DNA of 64,000 nt, taken from contig NZ_JAHKQI010000005.1 of assembly GCF_018860975.1 (NCBI RefSeq), positions 558,001-622,000 on the forward strand, written 5' to 3'. The notes beneath the pieces are model-generated. The model was not told where the DNA came from. It saw only the letters and a list, made by a program, of their open reading frames with translations, and searched no databases. Below are positions 16,833 through 26,246 of this stretch, in pieces. Source of the DNA: Lentibacter algarum. Its GTDB lineage: Bacteria > Pseudomonadota > Alphaproteobacteria > Rhodobacterales > Rhodobacteraceae. Position 1 is the first letter of the stretch, and every line of letters starts with the position of its first letter. The translations under genes and the position numbers were made by a program.

Positions 16833-16987
16833 ACATTCTGACCGTGCTCATTCCGGTGTCTCTTGTGCTTGGCGGTGTTGGGCTGCTGTTCTTTGTGTTC
16901 ACCCTAAAGAGCAACCAATACGAAGACCCTGACGGCGACGCACAGCGGATTTTGTCGGATGAGTTTGACGACAAGCCGAAGAGTTAA
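16829..16987 (+). CDS. ccoS: cbb3-type oxidase assembly protein CcoS
   Basis: A 52-residue protein starting at GTG 16829, overlapping the ccoI stop by four bases. A single membrane helix covers about residues 4-25. It is followed by the conserved SNQYEDPDGDAQRIL segment and an acidic tail, which is the CcoS/FixS pattern. CcoS is required for heme/copper insertion into the cbb3 oxidase. It completes ccoGHIS. Its stop codon overlaps by four bases the stop codon of the convergent Hint-domain gene. Confidence 0.92.
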   Translation: MNILTVLIPVSLVLGGVGLLFFVFTLKSNQYEDPDGDAQRILSDEFDDKPKS

Positions 16988-17997
16988 GCGGCTGTTGGCT
17001 GGGTGATCATCTCAGTGATCGCATAGGAAGTTTCGGCACTTGAAAGCACCATACGCGCTGCCGGCATGCGAAGCTGGCAAGCAAACTGACGTTGCAAAAC
17101 ACGCCGCACTTGTGGGCAGAACCCGAGCAACGCCATTTGCCCGAGGTGCAGGCTTTCGCTTGAAAGGCCCTCGGAGACAATAACCTCGTGCTGGGCAAAA
17201 AGCAGGTGATGAAACGCCAAGCCTGCGCTCACCGGAACCTCGCGGATACCGGCCCAGCCGACCAAAGCCTTGGCGGGTGCTAGCACCTCTGCCTCGCCAA
17301 ACCTGAGCTCGATTTCGGGGCCGCTCAACAAGATGCAATGATTGCGTGAGACGGTGAGGGGGCGTGACGGGCCCATGTGTCCGAAGGCTGCAACGGGAAT
17401 GCGAACTGCCGAGTTCGCGCGCTCAAACGAAGTAAGCTCGCGGCGACCTGCCCAAAGCACCGGCTGCGGGCCGTTGTCGCGGGTGTGCACGATATCACCG
17501 ATCTTCAAACCCTCGACGGGGCGGGGGCCTGTGCTTGTTTCGATCATCGTTCCGGTGAGAAAACAGGGCACGGTTCCGGCAGTTGGTGTTGTCGTGGCTG
17601 TGTAGTTTGTGCCATCGGTTGACTCAAAGCTGCCGCCAGAGGCAGTGGTTCCGAGCACAGTTGAGGTTGTTCCCGATGCTGGGCCAGCCGAAGCCGTGAC
17701 AGGCCCGTTGAACGAGAAGAACCCTGTGACGACACCATTGTCGACGATCGCGACCGCGCCGTTAGCATTCAGGCCGTTGAACGTTCCGGAGGTCGCGGTA
17801 TCTATCACATAGACATCGGTTCCAGCGATGGTGTTGTCGAGCGTTCCGAGTGTGTTTGTCGAGCGCACAGTGCCGTTGGGGTTGTAGATCACAATCGAAA
17901 TGTTGGAGACATTTGTGCCAGCATCAACCGCGACTTCAACAAAATCTGTGCTGGCTGCGCCAAGATACCTGATTTCAGAAATGTAAGGTGCTGGCAT
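16984..17997 (-). CDS. Hint-domain protein with N-terminal lamin-tail-like domain
   Basis: A 337-residue protein with no recognisable signal peptide. Residues 1-100 (SEIRYLGAASTDFVEVAV, then SIVIYNPNGTV) resemble a lamin-tail (LTD) beta domain. A low-complexity Thr/Ser/Gly linker spans about 101-141. A Hint (hedgehog/intein) domain begins at Cys145 in VPCFLTGTMIET and includes VSRNHCILLSG, the usual histidine block. Hint domains of this Rhodobacteraceae type are predicted to self-cleave before the cysteine; that is inference. It starts 21 bases after the dacA-type gene on the same strand and may be co-transcribed. Confidence 0.82.
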   Translation of the reverse strand: MPAPYISEIRYLGAASTDFVEVAVDAGTNVSNISIVIYNPNGTVRSTNTLGTLDNTIAGTDVYVIDTATSGTFNGLNANGAVAIVDNGVVTGFFSFNGPVTASAGPASGTTSTVLGTTASGGSFESTDGTNYTATTTPTAGTVPCFLTGTMIETSTGPRPVEGLKIGDIVHTRDNGPQPVLWAGRRELTSFERANSAVRIPVAAFGHMGPSRPLTVSRNHCILLSGPEIELRFGEAEVLAPAKALVGWAGIREVPVSAGLAFHHLLFAQHEVIVSEGLSSESLHLGQMALLGFCPQVRRVLQRQFACQLRMPAARMVLSSAETSYAITEMITQPTAA

Positions 17998-22939: not shown

Positions 22940-25900
22940 TTACAAGTCGATCTCGATCACTCCATCGGCCTCGGCTGCGCGCGATTGGCAGAGGATGATC
23001 TCCCCCTCGCGTTGCTTTGCGGAGAGCACAAAGTCGCGGTGCTCAACCTCGCCCGAGATGAGCCCGCATTTGCAGACGCCGCAGATTCCATCGGAGCATT
23101 TGACGTCAACATGAATGCCGTTCTCGGCCAGCACATCGGTTGCTGTTTTGTCAGCGGGCACTTGCAGCGCACGGCCATCTTTGAGCTTGAGGGTGAAGTC
23201 GTGATTTTCATACTCGGGTTGTTCGGGAACCGAGAAATACTCAAGATGTCGCGCCTCGTCGGGGAAGCCTTGTCGGGTGGCGGCGTCGATAACGCCCTCC
23301 ATGTAACGCTCGGGCCCGCAGGTATAGACGTGCTGGCCTTCGGCGTAGTTCGCGAGCAGTTGATCAAGGTCTGCGCGTGTGCCTTCATCGGAGAAGTGGT
23401 AGTGAACTTTGTCGGCCCACGGCATGTTTGCGAGGTCTTCAAGGTAGCCCGCATTTTTGCGCAAGCTGCAAGAGTAATGCAGCGCAAAGTCGCGGCCCAA
23501 GGCGTGCAAACGGTGTGCAAAAGCGATCATCGGAGTGATGCCGATACCGCCACCCATGAGGAAGGTTTTTCTGGCGTCTTCCACCAGCTCGAAGTGGTTG
23601 ATCGGGTAGCTCACAAATACCTTGCGGCCTTCGGTGAATATCCGGTGCATGAGGGCAGAGCCGCCCCGGCCTTCATCCTCGCGCAGCACGCCGATCTGGA
23701 ACTTGCTGCTGTCGGCCGGGTTGCCCGACATCGAATACTGCCGCAAGAACTCGGGCGAGACCAAAACATCGAGGTGTGCGCCAGCCGTCCAAGCGGGCAG
23801 GGGCGTGCCATCATCGGTGCTGAACTCATACTTCGTTACATCAGCGTTCATTTTGTCGGCCTTGGAGAGCGTCAGGCGCATGACAGGCGACTCGGTGTCG
23901 TTGGTGTAGCGGTGGATCATGGTGGTATCGCCAGCCTTGAGCCGCTCCTGATACTCCTTGGCGGGGATCATACTTTCATAGGCCTTGATGCCCTCTTCGC
24001 GATCCATCGGGAAAGGGTATGGATAGGGGTGCGGGGCCAGTGGGGCGGGGTAAACGGCGAGCGTTTGGTCTTCAAACTTTAGGTCAAGATCAGTCTGCAA
24101 CGGGCGGCGGTTGACCTCATGCACAGTCGGGCGGTAGGCGCCGTCGTCTTGCAGTTCCAGATCCCACCACCACTTTTTAACATCACGCGGGTTGCCGTTT
24201 CCGGCCATGTCATCAAGCTTCGCCAACACCGGCGCGGCCTTGGGGATGTTGCTTGCGGCCCAGCGGAAAGGGGCCTCGCTGAACAGGCCTTCAAGGTTCC
24301 ACGGGCAGGTCTTCATGCAGCGCCCACACATCGCGCCGCCGGCTGTGCCGATACGGTAGCTGGTGCATTTCTGGCTGTCGGATTTCCATGTTTCATAGCC
24401 GTTGAACATCAGCTTCGGGCCGGCCGTTATTGCGCCGGAGGGGCACTCGCGGGCGCATTTGTTGCAGCTCTCGCAGAAGTTTTGCAGACCAAAGTTGATC
24501 GGCCTGTCATGCGCCATCGGCATGTCGCTGGTGACGACGCCCGACTTGAGGCGCGGCCCGAGATAGGGGTTGAGGATCACCTCGCCGATGCGGCTGACTT
24601 CCCCGAGGCCAGCGAGCAGCAAGAGCGGCGGTTGCAGCACTTCACCGTCCATCACCGTATGCGCTTTGGCCTTGTAGCCAAGGTTGCGAATTTGCTGCGC
24701 GATGACGCCGCCAAGCAGAGAGAAGCGCAGATAGGCGCGCATGCTCTGGGCAACTGCGATCCAGTCGTCACCGGAGCTGCCCTCGGTGGTGTCAAAGCCT
24801 TGGTCGATGATCATGCTGATCGCTTCCCCATGCGGCGGGATCAGCTCTTCACCGGTGGCGTCATGGCTATACCATGTCCAGTCCGGGCAGCGCGACAGGC
24901 CCACGGCATCGACGCTGAGAAAGTAGCTCGCGGCTTTGATGTTGTCGGCGTTTCGTTGTGCATCGGTGGGCTTTTCAACCGCTTTGCTTTCACCGTCTTG
25001 GAGCAAAACGAAAGCCCCCAAAGCGCGGCGCTGTGCAAAGGCAGGCGCGGCTTTGCGCACATAATGCCCGCCCTTGGCGTTGTCTTGCTGGGTCTTGCCC
25101 ATGTCACCGAACTGCGCGCGCGCAAACATGTCGGTGCGCTTGGGAACACGGGCGACATTGGCCTCGTCGATGTACGTTGTCGGGCTGTCCTGCCGCTTGA
25201 GTTTTTCAAACGGATGCGCACCGAGCACGTAGTCGCGTTTGGCGTAAGCGTCACGCCCGAGGGCTGACTTCGAGTGACCCTTGCCAAGCCACCAACCGGG
25301 CGCGAACTTGGCTTGATCGGCCCACTGCGCGAGGGGCTTGTCGTGGGCGAGGGGCATGTCTGTTGTCACCGCAGCAAGGCCAAAACGGGGGCCGAGCCAC
25401 GGTGCATGTGCTTCGCCATCTTCAATTGAGCAAAGCCCGGCGGCGACGGCGAGTTGGCCGAGGTCAACATCGGTCGAGGTTTCTGTGTGGCCACGAGCCG
25501 AGTAGCCAAGCAGGCGGATATAGTTTGACAACACGCTTGCGGCCTCGGCGCCCAGGAGGGCGGCGCGCTGGGCTTGTGCGTCGATGATCCACTCGCTGCC
25601 AGCCTCGTCAGGGCGCGGGTCACGGTTATATTCGATCACAAAAACCAGCGTATGTTTGTGGCTTGATATATCGCCCGGCTCGGCTTGCATGCTTTCGCGC
25701 AGGTCGGCCATGATCACGTCAATGCCCGAAGCAAGCGTCTTGGTCTGACGGGTTTTCAGCGCCTCGGAAAGCCGCGCAACATCGGGGTTTACTCGCGGCT
25801 CTGACAACCATGCAGAGGCAGGCAAAGGGCCGCAGCCGACCATCGACATATCGTTGAAGTAGCCAAAAGCCTTGAGGTGATCGGCGCGTTCAACAGGGCT

Positions 25901-26140
25901 GTCGGGGATGCCAGCCTTGGCGGGGTTCACAAAGCCGTCACGGATCGCGTCGAGCATGGCTTGAAACTCGCCCATGGCGTTGACGATGCTTTCGGGCTGT
26001 TCAGGGCGCTGAAAGCTAAGGTGCGGGCGCGCAGCGAGGCTTGTGAGGTCGGGGATATCAAGCACGCGCTTGAGGTTTTCGAGCGGGTAGGGGCCTTTGT
26101 GAACAGGCCGCTTGCGTGCGGAAAAGAACTTATGACCCAT
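22940..26140 (-). CDS. Catabolic reductive dehalogenase fused to flavin/2Fe-2S reductase
   Basis: A 1066-residue predicted cobalamin-dependent reductive dehalogenase of the cytoplasmic catabolic type (NpRdhA, BhbA). There is no Tat signal and no RdhB anchor gene. Residues 1-540 form the duplicated cobalamin-binding region, with Tyr424 in WTWYSHD at about the position of the catalytic Tyr426 of NpRdhA. Two 4Fe-4S motifs follow: Cys556/559/562/566 and Cys592/605/608/612. From about residue 740 there is a phthalate-dioxygenase-reductase-like module: RQYSMSG near 801, GGGIGITPM near 865, CGPERYM near 940, and a plant-type 2Fe-2S domain with Cys1015/1020/1023/1051. It would draw electrons directly from NAD(P)H. 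ATG 26140 follows AAGGAG by seven bases. It is divergent from the fructose-bisphosphatase gene. Confidence 0.92.
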   Translation of the reverse strand: MGHKFFSARKRPVHKGPYPLENLKRVLDIPDLTSLAARPHLSFQRPEQPESIVNAMGEFQAMLDAIRDGFVNPAKAGIPDSPVERADHLKAFGYFNDMSMVGCGPLPASAWLSEPRVNPDVARLSEALKTRQTKTLASGIDVIMADLRESMQAEPGDISSHKHTLVFVIEYNRDPRPDEAGSEWIIDAQAQRAALLGAEAASVLSNYIRLLGYSARGHTETSTDVDLGQLAVAAGLCSIEDGEAHAPWLGPRFGLAAVTTDMPLAHDKPLAQWADQAKFAPGWWLGKGHSKSALGRDAYAKRDYVLGAHPFEKLKRQDSPTTYIDEANVARVPKRTDMFARAQFGDMGKTQQDNAKGGHYVRKAAPAFAQRRALGAFVLLQDGESKAVEKPTDAQRNADNIKAASYFLSVDAVGLSRCPDWTWYSHDATGEELIPPHGEAISMIIDQGFDTTEGSSGDDWIAVAQSMRAYLRFSLLGGVIAQQIRNLGYKAKAHTVMDGEVLQPPLLLLAGLGEVSRIGEVILNPYLGPRLKSGVVTSDMPMAHDRPINFGLQNFCESCNKCARECPSGAITAGPKLMFNGYETWKSDSQKCTSYRIGTAGGAMCGRCMKTCPWNLEGLFSEAPFRWAASNIPKAAPVLAKLDDMAGNGNPRDVKKWWWDLELQDDGAYRPTVHEVNRRPLQTDLDLKFEDQTLAVYPAPLAPHPYPYPFPMDREEGIKAYESMIPAKEYQERLKAGDTTMIHRYTNDTESPVMRLTLSKADKMNADVTKYEFSTDDGTPLPAWTAGAHLDVLVSPEFLRQYSMSGNPADSSKFQIGVLREDEGRGGSALMHRIFTEGRKVFVSYPINHFELVEDARKTFLMGGGIGITPMIAFAHRLHALGRDFALHYSCSLRKNAGYLEDLANMPWADKVHYHFSDEGTRADLDQLLANYAEGQHVYTCGPERYMEGVIDAATRQGFPDEARHLEYFSVPEQPEYENHDFTLKLKDGRALQVPADKTATDVLAENGIHVDVKCSDGICGVCKCGLISGEVEHRDFVLSAKQREGEIILCQSRAAEADGVIEIDL

Positions 26141-26246
26141 TTTGCGACTCCTTTAGATGTTAACAATCTGCGCCGTTTGGTTAGGGGATTCAATTCCCTT
26201 TCAAAATCTGGGATATGTAGAGGCAGATTTGTAAAAGGAATCACCC

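What the first reader, a model, noticed from the sequence alone, without database searches (positions are those of the whole stretch)
22940..26140. Self-sufficient catabolic reductive dehalogenase in a roseobacter-type genome
One 1066-residue chain combines a duplicated cobalamin-binding domain, two 4Fe-4S clusters (Cys556-566 and Cys592-612), and an FMN/NAD/2Fe-2S reductase (2Fe-2S Cys1015-1051). It has no Tat signal and no membrane anchor gene, so it would act in the cytoplasm with NAD(P)H as donor, unlike organohalide-respiring enzymes. Tyr424 sits near the catalytic Tyr426 of NpRdhA. Related BhbA-type fusions are known, but the substrate and purpose in a probably aerobic marine bacterium are open; natural bromophenols are one possibility. 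No dehalogenation regulator or transporter is adjacent.
Basis: partly seen in the sequence, partly recalled or inferred. Interest (0 to 1): 0.75.

Follow-up and report, generated by a model that had tools for sequence, protein, structure and literature searches.

The report
Self-sufficient bromophenol-type reductive dehalogenase
This gene encodes an oxygen-tolerant type of enzyme that probably uses NADPH and vitamin B12 to strip bromine or iodine from phenolic compounds in a marine bacterium; it is a good example of an enzyme type that is already known and already tested in relatives.

Summary
The 1066-aa gene is real, open throughout and constrained (dN/dS about 0.1). It is an RdhA fused to a phthalate-dioxygenase-reductase module, 43.6% identical to crystallised NpRdhA (512 positions) and 49.4% to BhbA end to end. 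The equivalents of NpRdhA Tyr426/Lys488/Arg552 are Tyr470/Lys532/Arg596, invariant in the 34 sequences aligned. It is not QueG, which the genome has separately.

The kind is known: the self-sufficient enzyme of marine Jhaorihella thermophila was shown in 2023 to debrominate and deiodinate ortho-halophenols with NADPH, also aerobically, best with 3,5-dibromo-4-hydroxybenzoate. I counted full-length, split or cut copies in 112 of 295 family genomes. The genome also carries CobN, a pobA-pcaHG-type cluster and a short RdhA 75% identical to the assayed Roseobacter MED193 debrominase.

One point I did not meet in the papers I saw: rdhA lies directly beside pobA at three separate places on the rdhA tree. 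That supports halogenated 4-hydroxybenzoate as a natural substrate, the product passing to protocatechuate. In the window's genome the two genes are on different contigs. No structure model was obtained (ten attempts, machine busy).

The parts
22940..26140 (-). rdhA-PDOR fusion gene, 1066 aa
25241..26140 (-). N-terminal copy of the cobalamin-binding fold (residues 1-300), vestigial in known relatives; residues about 105-155 form an insertion against NpRdhA
   Evidence: self-match 158-270 to 434-548; residues 105-155 face only chain residues 99-106 in the alignment; vestigial status and fusion-specific insert from PMC10463259
23936..24955 (-). catalytic cobalamin domain with two 4Fe-4S clusters (residues 396-735); Tyr470, Lys532, Arg596, Ser466
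24731..24733 (-). codon of Tyr470, equivalent of NpRdhA Tyr426
   Evidence: coordinate computed from the ORF start
24545..24547 (-). codon of Lys532, equivalent of NpRdhA Lys488
   Evidence: coordinate computed from the ORF start
24353..24355 (-). codon of Arg596, equivalent of NpRdhA Arg552
   Evidence: coordinate computed from the ORF start
22943..23896 (-). phthalate-dioxygenase-reductase-like module (residues 749-1066; flavin, NAD(P)H, 2Fe-2S)
   Evidence: 2pia E 2.1e-52 over 749-1063; Fer2 989-1055

Best explanation
A cytoplasmic, self-sufficient catabolic reductive dehalogenase of the JtRdhA/BhbA kind. NAD(P)H gives a hydride to the flavin (FMN in the relative) of the C-terminal module; electrons pass one at a time through the 2Fe-2S cluster and the two 4Fe-4S clusters to base-off cobalamin; the ortho carbon-halogen bond of a phenol is cleaved with Tyr470 (paired with Lys532) as proton donor and Lys532, Arg596 and Ser466 holding the phenolic oxygen. 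Most likely substrates are natural brominated or iodinated 4-hydroxybenzoates and similar ortho-halophenols. The 4-hydroxybenzoate released can enter PobA and protocatechuate 3,4-dioxygenase, both encoded elsewhere in this genome. Shown here: architecture, residues, constraint, presence of the pathway genes, and linkage to pobA in some relatives. Inferred from relatives: electron path, activity, substrate and physiological role in this organism.
For: NpRdhA homology E 7.6e-155; TIGR02486 over its cut-off. Tyr470, Lys532, Arg596, Ser466, Met467 and Phe339 are identical to NpRdhA and invariant in 34 of 34 sequences (the query and 33 of the 80 loci) and in 35 of 35 roseo-type rows. These are the six residues reported conserved in assayed JtRdhA (PMC10463259), whose best substrate is 3,5-dibromo-4-hydroxybenzoate. 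CobN 1660.6 bits against a cut-off of 1235. PobA and, about 0.5 kb on, a protocatechuate 3,4-dioxygenase beta-subunit match over its cut-off lie on contig C11. Of 89 family genomes with both genes, rdhA and pobA are adjacent in 3 and within 20 kb in 6, those 3 included, against about 0.16 and 0.9 expected (Poisson P about 6e-4 and 3e-4, kinship ignored). pobA is directly downstream in 3 of 81 loci searched (L040, L058, L077). The five adjacent rows need at least 3 changes on the tree. On plasmid pOM-1 an rdhA 49.0% identical to the query lies 3.4 kb from pobA with ring-cleavage genes between. Carriers have PobA more often: 89 of 112 against 111 of 183, odds ratio 2.5, P 8e-4.
Against: The window's rdhA is on C8 and pobA on C11. 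In 83 of 89 genomes with both genes no linkage within 20 kb was seen, though draft contigs hide some. 23 of 112 carriers have no PobA hit at 1e-60, so PobA cannot be the universal next step. Three changes on the tree may also be one gain and two losses. Neighbourhoods vary: 83 representatives of immediate neighbours gave no family in more than 3. In 5 loci, mostly Shimia, the neighbour is instead a fumarylacetoacetate-hydrolase-family gene. The association test is not corrected for kinship. Pocket positions differ from NpRdhA and BhbA (Val463 for Ala/Ser, Val496 for Asn/Ala, Ala355 for Lys/Ser), so the preferred substrate could differ. The JtRdhA sequence was not in reach, so identity to it was not measured. 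No structure model.
Confidence: 0.85

Rival explanations
1. Detoxification rather than catabolism: the enzyme removes halogens from toxic algal or bacterial bromophenols, without carbon gain.
For: 23 of 112 carriers have no PobA hit; the gene stands in varied contexts; the relative JtRdhA also accepts bromophenols without a carboxylate, though at lower rates (PMC10463259 Table 1).
Against: Linkage to pobA in five loci at three places on the tree and to ring-cleavage genes on pBHB and pOM-1; best JtRdhA substrates are acids that feed aromatic catabolism.
Confidence: 0.35
2. The preferred substrate is another ortho-halophenol, such as 3-halo-4-hydroxyphenylacetate or a halotyrosine product, not a halogenated benzoate.
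For: JtRdhA takes 3-bromo-4-hydroxyphenylacetate at 99% of its best rate. Pocket residues differ from BhbA and NpRdhA in a way largely shared by the 35 roseo-type rows. A fumarylacetoacetate-hydrolase-family gene adjoins rdhA in 5 of 81 loci; two of these scanned show some likeness to HpaG of hydroxyphenylacetate breakdown (79.4 and 92.1 bits), but far under its cut-off of 276.4.
Against: pobA, which acts on 4-hydroxybenzoate, adjoins rdhA in scattered lineages, whereas the hydrolase-family gene is in five loci only and not assigned to a pathway. I did not search genomes for hydroxyphenylacetate genes, and one search shows only 25 of 81 neighbour families.
Confidence: 0.3
3. The gene works in one operon with the downstream CoA ligase, thioesterase and reductase (22835-19751), acting on CoA esters.
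For: Same strand, 104 bases after the rdhA stop, and 4-base overlaps among the three genes; the ligase is also downstream in L002 and L003.
Against: The ligase matches 3-(methylthio)propionyl-CoA ligase best (751 bits, under the cut-off of 822) and structure 6ihk (E 1.4e-174; a link to DMSP breakdown is recalled). The rdhA-ligase arrangement is seen in 3 of 81 loci, all of the window's own clade.
Confidence: 0.05
4. It is an epoxyqueuosine reductase (QueG) or a QueG-like protein.
For: Weak TIGR00276 similarity (26.3 bits, cut-off 200).
Against: A clear QueG lies elsewhere (C5, 422.2 bits); RDH model over its cut-off; NpRdhA catalytic residues conserved.
Confidence: 0.01

Closest known systems
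JtRdhA, Jhaorihella thermophila (WP_104007082; PMC10463259)
   Same: RdhA-PDOR fusion, duplicated cobalamin domain, no Tat signal, marine host (its roseobacter kinship is recalled); the same six active-site residues (F291, S422, M423, Y426, K488, R552 in NpRdhA numbering)
   Different: JtRdhA was assayed; this protein was not. Identity could not be measured because the JtRdhA sequence was not in reach.
BhbA, Comamonas sp. 7D-2 plasmid pBHB (WP_015585978)
   Same: Full-length fusion, 49.4% identity over the whole length; Tyr/Lys/Arg/Ser identical
   Different: On a plasmid typed as conjugative, beside ligAB and transporter genes; pocket residues Ser/Ala/Phe/Ser where this protein has Val463/Val496/Met338/Tyr360
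NpRdhA, Nitratireductor pacificus (PDB 4ras, 6zxu)
   Same: Catalytic domain, 43.6% identity over 512 aligned positions; active-site core identical
   Different: NpRdhA has no fused reductase (PMC10463259) and no counterpart to residues about 105-155
Ros_A3X954 type short RdhA (Roseobacter MED193; PMC13101508)
   Same: Non-Tat RdhA of a marine roseobacter; a 75% identical protein is encoded elsewhere in this genome
   Different: About 391 aa, too short for a duplicated domain or reductase; 27% identity to the window protein over 324 positions

Membership tests
Self-sufficient catabolic RdhA (RdhA-PDOR fusion) | RdhA domain followed by a PDOR-type reductase in one chain | tested here: met
   NpRdhA match 156-735, PDR match 749-1063; TIGR02486
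Self-sufficient catabolic RdhA (RdhA-PDOR fusion) | Duplicated cobalamin-binding domain | tested here: met
   37% identity over 115 positions, E 1e-15
Self-sufficient catabolic RdhA (RdhA-PDOR fusion) | Two 4Fe-4S motifs and one 2Fe-2S motif | tested here: met
Self-sufficient catabolic RdhA (RdhA-PDOR fusion) | Y426, K488, R552 of NpRdhA | tested here: met
   Y470, K532, R596
Self-sufficient catabolic RdhA (RdhA-PDOR fusion) | No Tat signal | tested here: met
   No RR in the first 60 residues, no hydrophobic segment; simple test, no signal predictor
Self-sufficient catabolic RdhA (RdhA-PDOR fusion) | No membrane anchor subunit | tested here: inconclusive
   The neighbouring genes scanned belong to other families, but no search for an rdhB-type gene was run
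Self-sufficient catabolic RdhA (RdhA-PDOR fusion) | Base-off cobalamin bound; NAD(P)H-dependent dehalogenation | not testable with these tools
   Needs purified protein; ten structure attempts met a busy machine
Respiratory RdhA | Tat signal for export | tested here: not met
QueG | TIGR00276 over its cut-off | tested here: not met
   26.3 bits against 200; separate QueG on C5
Pfam PF13486 (Dehalogenase) | Match over the curated cut-off | tested here: not met
   No PF13486 hit to P0001 at 0.001 and none at this place in the own-genome search; TIGR02486 and NpRdhA homology suggest a limit of that Pfam model

The most novel reading that the evidence does not exclude
In marine Rhodobacteraceae the RdhA-PDOR enzyme is the entry step of a widespread aerobic pathway in which naturally brominated or iodinated 4-hydroxybenzoates are dehalogenated to 4-hydroxybenzoate and passed to PobA. 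Its joining to pobA at separate places on its tree, its pocket signature shared across the clade (Val463, Val496 and Tyr360 in 35 of 35 rows, Met338 in 33) and its presence in about 38% of sampled family genomes (112 of 295) point to a common natural substrate in the ocean.
Probability: 0.4. Interest if true: 0.5.

Novelty: new member of a known kind. Interest (0 to 1): 0.27.

Why it matters
It shows that B12-dependent dehalogenation is an ordinary part of the gene pool of marine Rhodobacteraceae, not only of anaerobic organohalide respirers. That the kind is widespread in roseobacters and other aerobic marine proteobacteria is already in print (Chen et al. 2013 as cited in PMC13101508 and PMC5316534). 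What the linkage to pobA adds is a testable natural pathway: bromo- or iodo-4-hydroxybenzoate to 4-hydroxybenzoate to protocatechuate.

Tried and rejected
The operon with the downstream ligase was considered and put aside: the ligase looks like a methylthiopropionyl or fatty-acid CoA ligase and the arrangement is limited to the window's own clade. A tandem second RdhA seemed present in two loci, but this came from my script taking the longest plus-strand ORF as RdhA; one search showed one RdhA each. The same shortcut may have misplaced neighbours in a few loci. A conserved block upstream of the window gene (GGGAATTGAATCCC, exact in WIN, L002, L003, L004) was tested as a general operator: exact in 4 of 78 upstream regions (78 of the 81 I had; L074, L075 and L077 left out), so it belongs to one clade only. 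A promoter and terminator scan found about as many sites as shuffles (1 against 1.0, 6 against 4.7). Codon analysis by YN00 failed for all seven pairs and NG86 was saturated for L007; the other six NG86 ratios are 0.099, 0.090, 0.104, 0.093, 0.058 and 0.127 (L002, L003, L004, L005, L044, L058), the last three with dS over 2. Structure prediction never started. The long-branch warning led me to leave NpRdhA out. Rows dropped before the count of 112 carriers: G033 (RdhA without reductase) and fragments G096, G160 and G212; rows kept although split or cut: G099, G269, G102, G287.
Full report
What is there. The minus-strand ORF 22940-26140 encodes 1066 residues. By sequence it matches NpRdhA over residues 156-735 with a second stretch at 4-104 (E 7.6e-155), and phthalate dioxygenase reductase over 749-1063 (E 2.1e-52). 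NCBIfam's reductive dehalogenase model is over its cut-off (185.3 against 160.35) and QueG far under (26.3 against 200). Pfam's PF13486 does not hit it at 0.001, probably a limit of that model.

On the pairwise alignment, NpRdhA Tyr426, Lys488, Arg552 and Ser422 correspond to Tyr470, Lys532, Arg596 and Ser466, and a 39-row alignment agrees. All four are invariant in the 34 sequences (the query and 33 of the 80 loci), as are the twelve cluster cysteines. [quoted passage not shown] Around this core the pocket differs: Ala419 is Val463, Asn452 is Val496, Phe310 is Tyr360, Lys307 is Ala355 and Phe290 is Met338. In the 35 roseo-type rows including the query, Val463, Val496 and Tyr360 are in 35 of 35, Met338 in 33 and Ala355 in 32, while BhbA has Ser, Ala, Ser, Ser and Phe at these five. 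The JtRdhA authors likewise report the core as conserved, with minor changes near the second bromine site (PMC10463259 discussion).

Constraint and kin. dN/dS by NG86 is 0.099, 0.090 and 0.104 against L002-L004, and 0.093, 0.058 and 0.127 against L005, L044 and L058, where dS exceeds 2. The nearest relative is from an uncultured Lentibacter (87%), then Lentibacter sp. XHP0401 (84%), and the tree puts the query with these (99*). One scan of genome contigs found 241 relatives, of which the best 80 were kept. In 295 genomes of the window's family, 177 have some match at 1e-20, a good part of them to the reductase part only; I counted 112 with a full-length, split or cut fusion. Plasmid records carry it too: 8 of 72,556 cover at least 80% of it, among them Ruegeria TM1040, Tritonibacter, Yoonia and Jannaschia.

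Surroundings. Upstream and divergent lie fructose-bisphosphatase, aldolase and ribulose-phosphate epimerase genes; downstream on the same strand lie a CoA ligase, a thioesterase and an NADPH-dependent reductase. These do not point to dehalogenation. Across 81 loci the neighbours vary by genus, and 83 representatives of immediate neighbours (short or cut ones left out) showed no family in more than three. Some groups have a regulator beside rdhA: a LuxR-type gene in 8 loci, in 7 of them immediately upstream and divergent, and a LysR-type in 6 (one representative of each scanned), and MarR-type on two plasmids. Five loci, mostly Shimia, have a fumarylacetoacetate-hydrolase-family gene beside it; two of these scanned reach no NCBIfam cut-off.

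A lead to the substrate. Of the 89 family genomes with both genes, 3 have them adjacent and 6, those included, within 20 kb; I compared pobA positions for all 89 (68, 21 by eye), though different contigs of a draft cannot be compared. Simple Poisson expectations are 0.16 and 0.9 (P about 6e-4 and 3e-4); these take a 4 Mb genome and ignore kinship. On the tree the five adjacent rows need at least 3 changes, which could be three gains or one gain and two losses. On plasmid pOM-1 (rdhA 49.0% identical) pobA lies 3.4 kb from rdhA with ring-cleavage genes between, and on pBHB ligAB is next but one or two. Against this, the window's own pobA is on another contig, 83 of the 89 show no such linkage, and 23 of 112 carriers lack a PobA hit at 1e-60. 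PobA was looked for because a monooxygenase follows BhbA in the bromoxynil route (recalled at the time; PMC5316534 passages: nitrilase, BhbA, a monooxygenase, a protocatechuate dioxygenase).

The rest of the genome. CobN is present. pobA and a protocatechuate dioxygenase beta-subunit match (343.2 bits, cut-off 296.4), with a second weaker match behind it, lie together on C11. Three further members of the superfamily were found by the QueG model: QueG on C5, a 391-aa short RdhA on C6 and a 329-aa RdhA-like protein on C8, 17 kb outside the window. The short one is 75% identical to the MED193 protein whose cluster motifs lie at exactly the positions given for Ros_A3X954, the debrominase assayed in 2026. 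Short and fused types co-occur more than expected (28 of 40 short carriers also have the fusion; odds ratio 4.75, P 1.4e-5, no correction for kinship).

Literature. Read: PMC10463259 (abstract and introduction, sections on modelling, substrate scope and discussion), PMC13101508 (abstract, sections on screening and phylogeny, discussion), passages of PMC7565698 and PMC5316534. Chen et al. 2013 on BhbA was not read; it is known here only as cited. My paper searches showed no listing whose title or abstract start describes linkage of rdhA to pobA in roseobacters; I opened only four papers and subscription journals are mostly not held, so this is weak evidence of absence.

Verdict. An open, constrained member of a known and already assayed enzyme kind. 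The added value is the corrected residues, the spread in the family and a testable pathway.

Noticed in passing
L001 991-2166 (own genome, contig C6): A second, short RdhA of 391 aa, 75% identical to the assayed MED193 debrominase type; 40 of 295 family genomes have a match at 1e-30.
   Followed up: partly
L113 895-1884 (own genome, contig C8, 17 kb before the window): A 329-aa RdhA-like protein, 103.6 bits to TIGR02486 (under its cut-off of 160.35) and under the QueG cut-off; function unknown.
   Followed up: partly
window 26141-26246: The gap between rdhA and the divergent fructose-bisphosphatase gene holds GGGAATTGAATCCC, exact also in L002, L003 and L004 but in no other of 78 upstream regions; also an imperfect 18-nt inverted repeat at 26193-26241.
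   Followed up: yes
L013, L015, L016, L019, L029, L031, L035, L044, L060, L062, L066, L067, L079, 65-73 bases upstream of rdhA: A shared block resembling TCACTCATTCGGGTGACAGA upstream of rdhA in 13 of 78 regions; in L013, L016, L019, L029, L031, L035 and L044 a divergent LuxR-type gene lies next to it. A candidate operator.
   Followed up: no
G099:C4:333239-336432 and G269:C1:2006487-2009686: The fusion is split into two open frames near residues 330 and 400 of the query, within the RdhA part; natural split or frameshift not decided.
   Followed up: no
G193:C12:38798-40090: A second, partial rdhA copy (residues 638-1066, 66% identity) with two in-frame stops besides the full one in the same genome: a likely relic.
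   Followed up: no
L054 and L068: RdhA of Boseongicola sp. H5 and Rhodophyticola porphyridii are separated by very short branches despite different genus names; recent transfer or mislabelled record.
   Followed up: no
window 16987-17997: A 337-aa protein with a Hint domain, Hint_2, E 4.5e-42.
   Followed up: no
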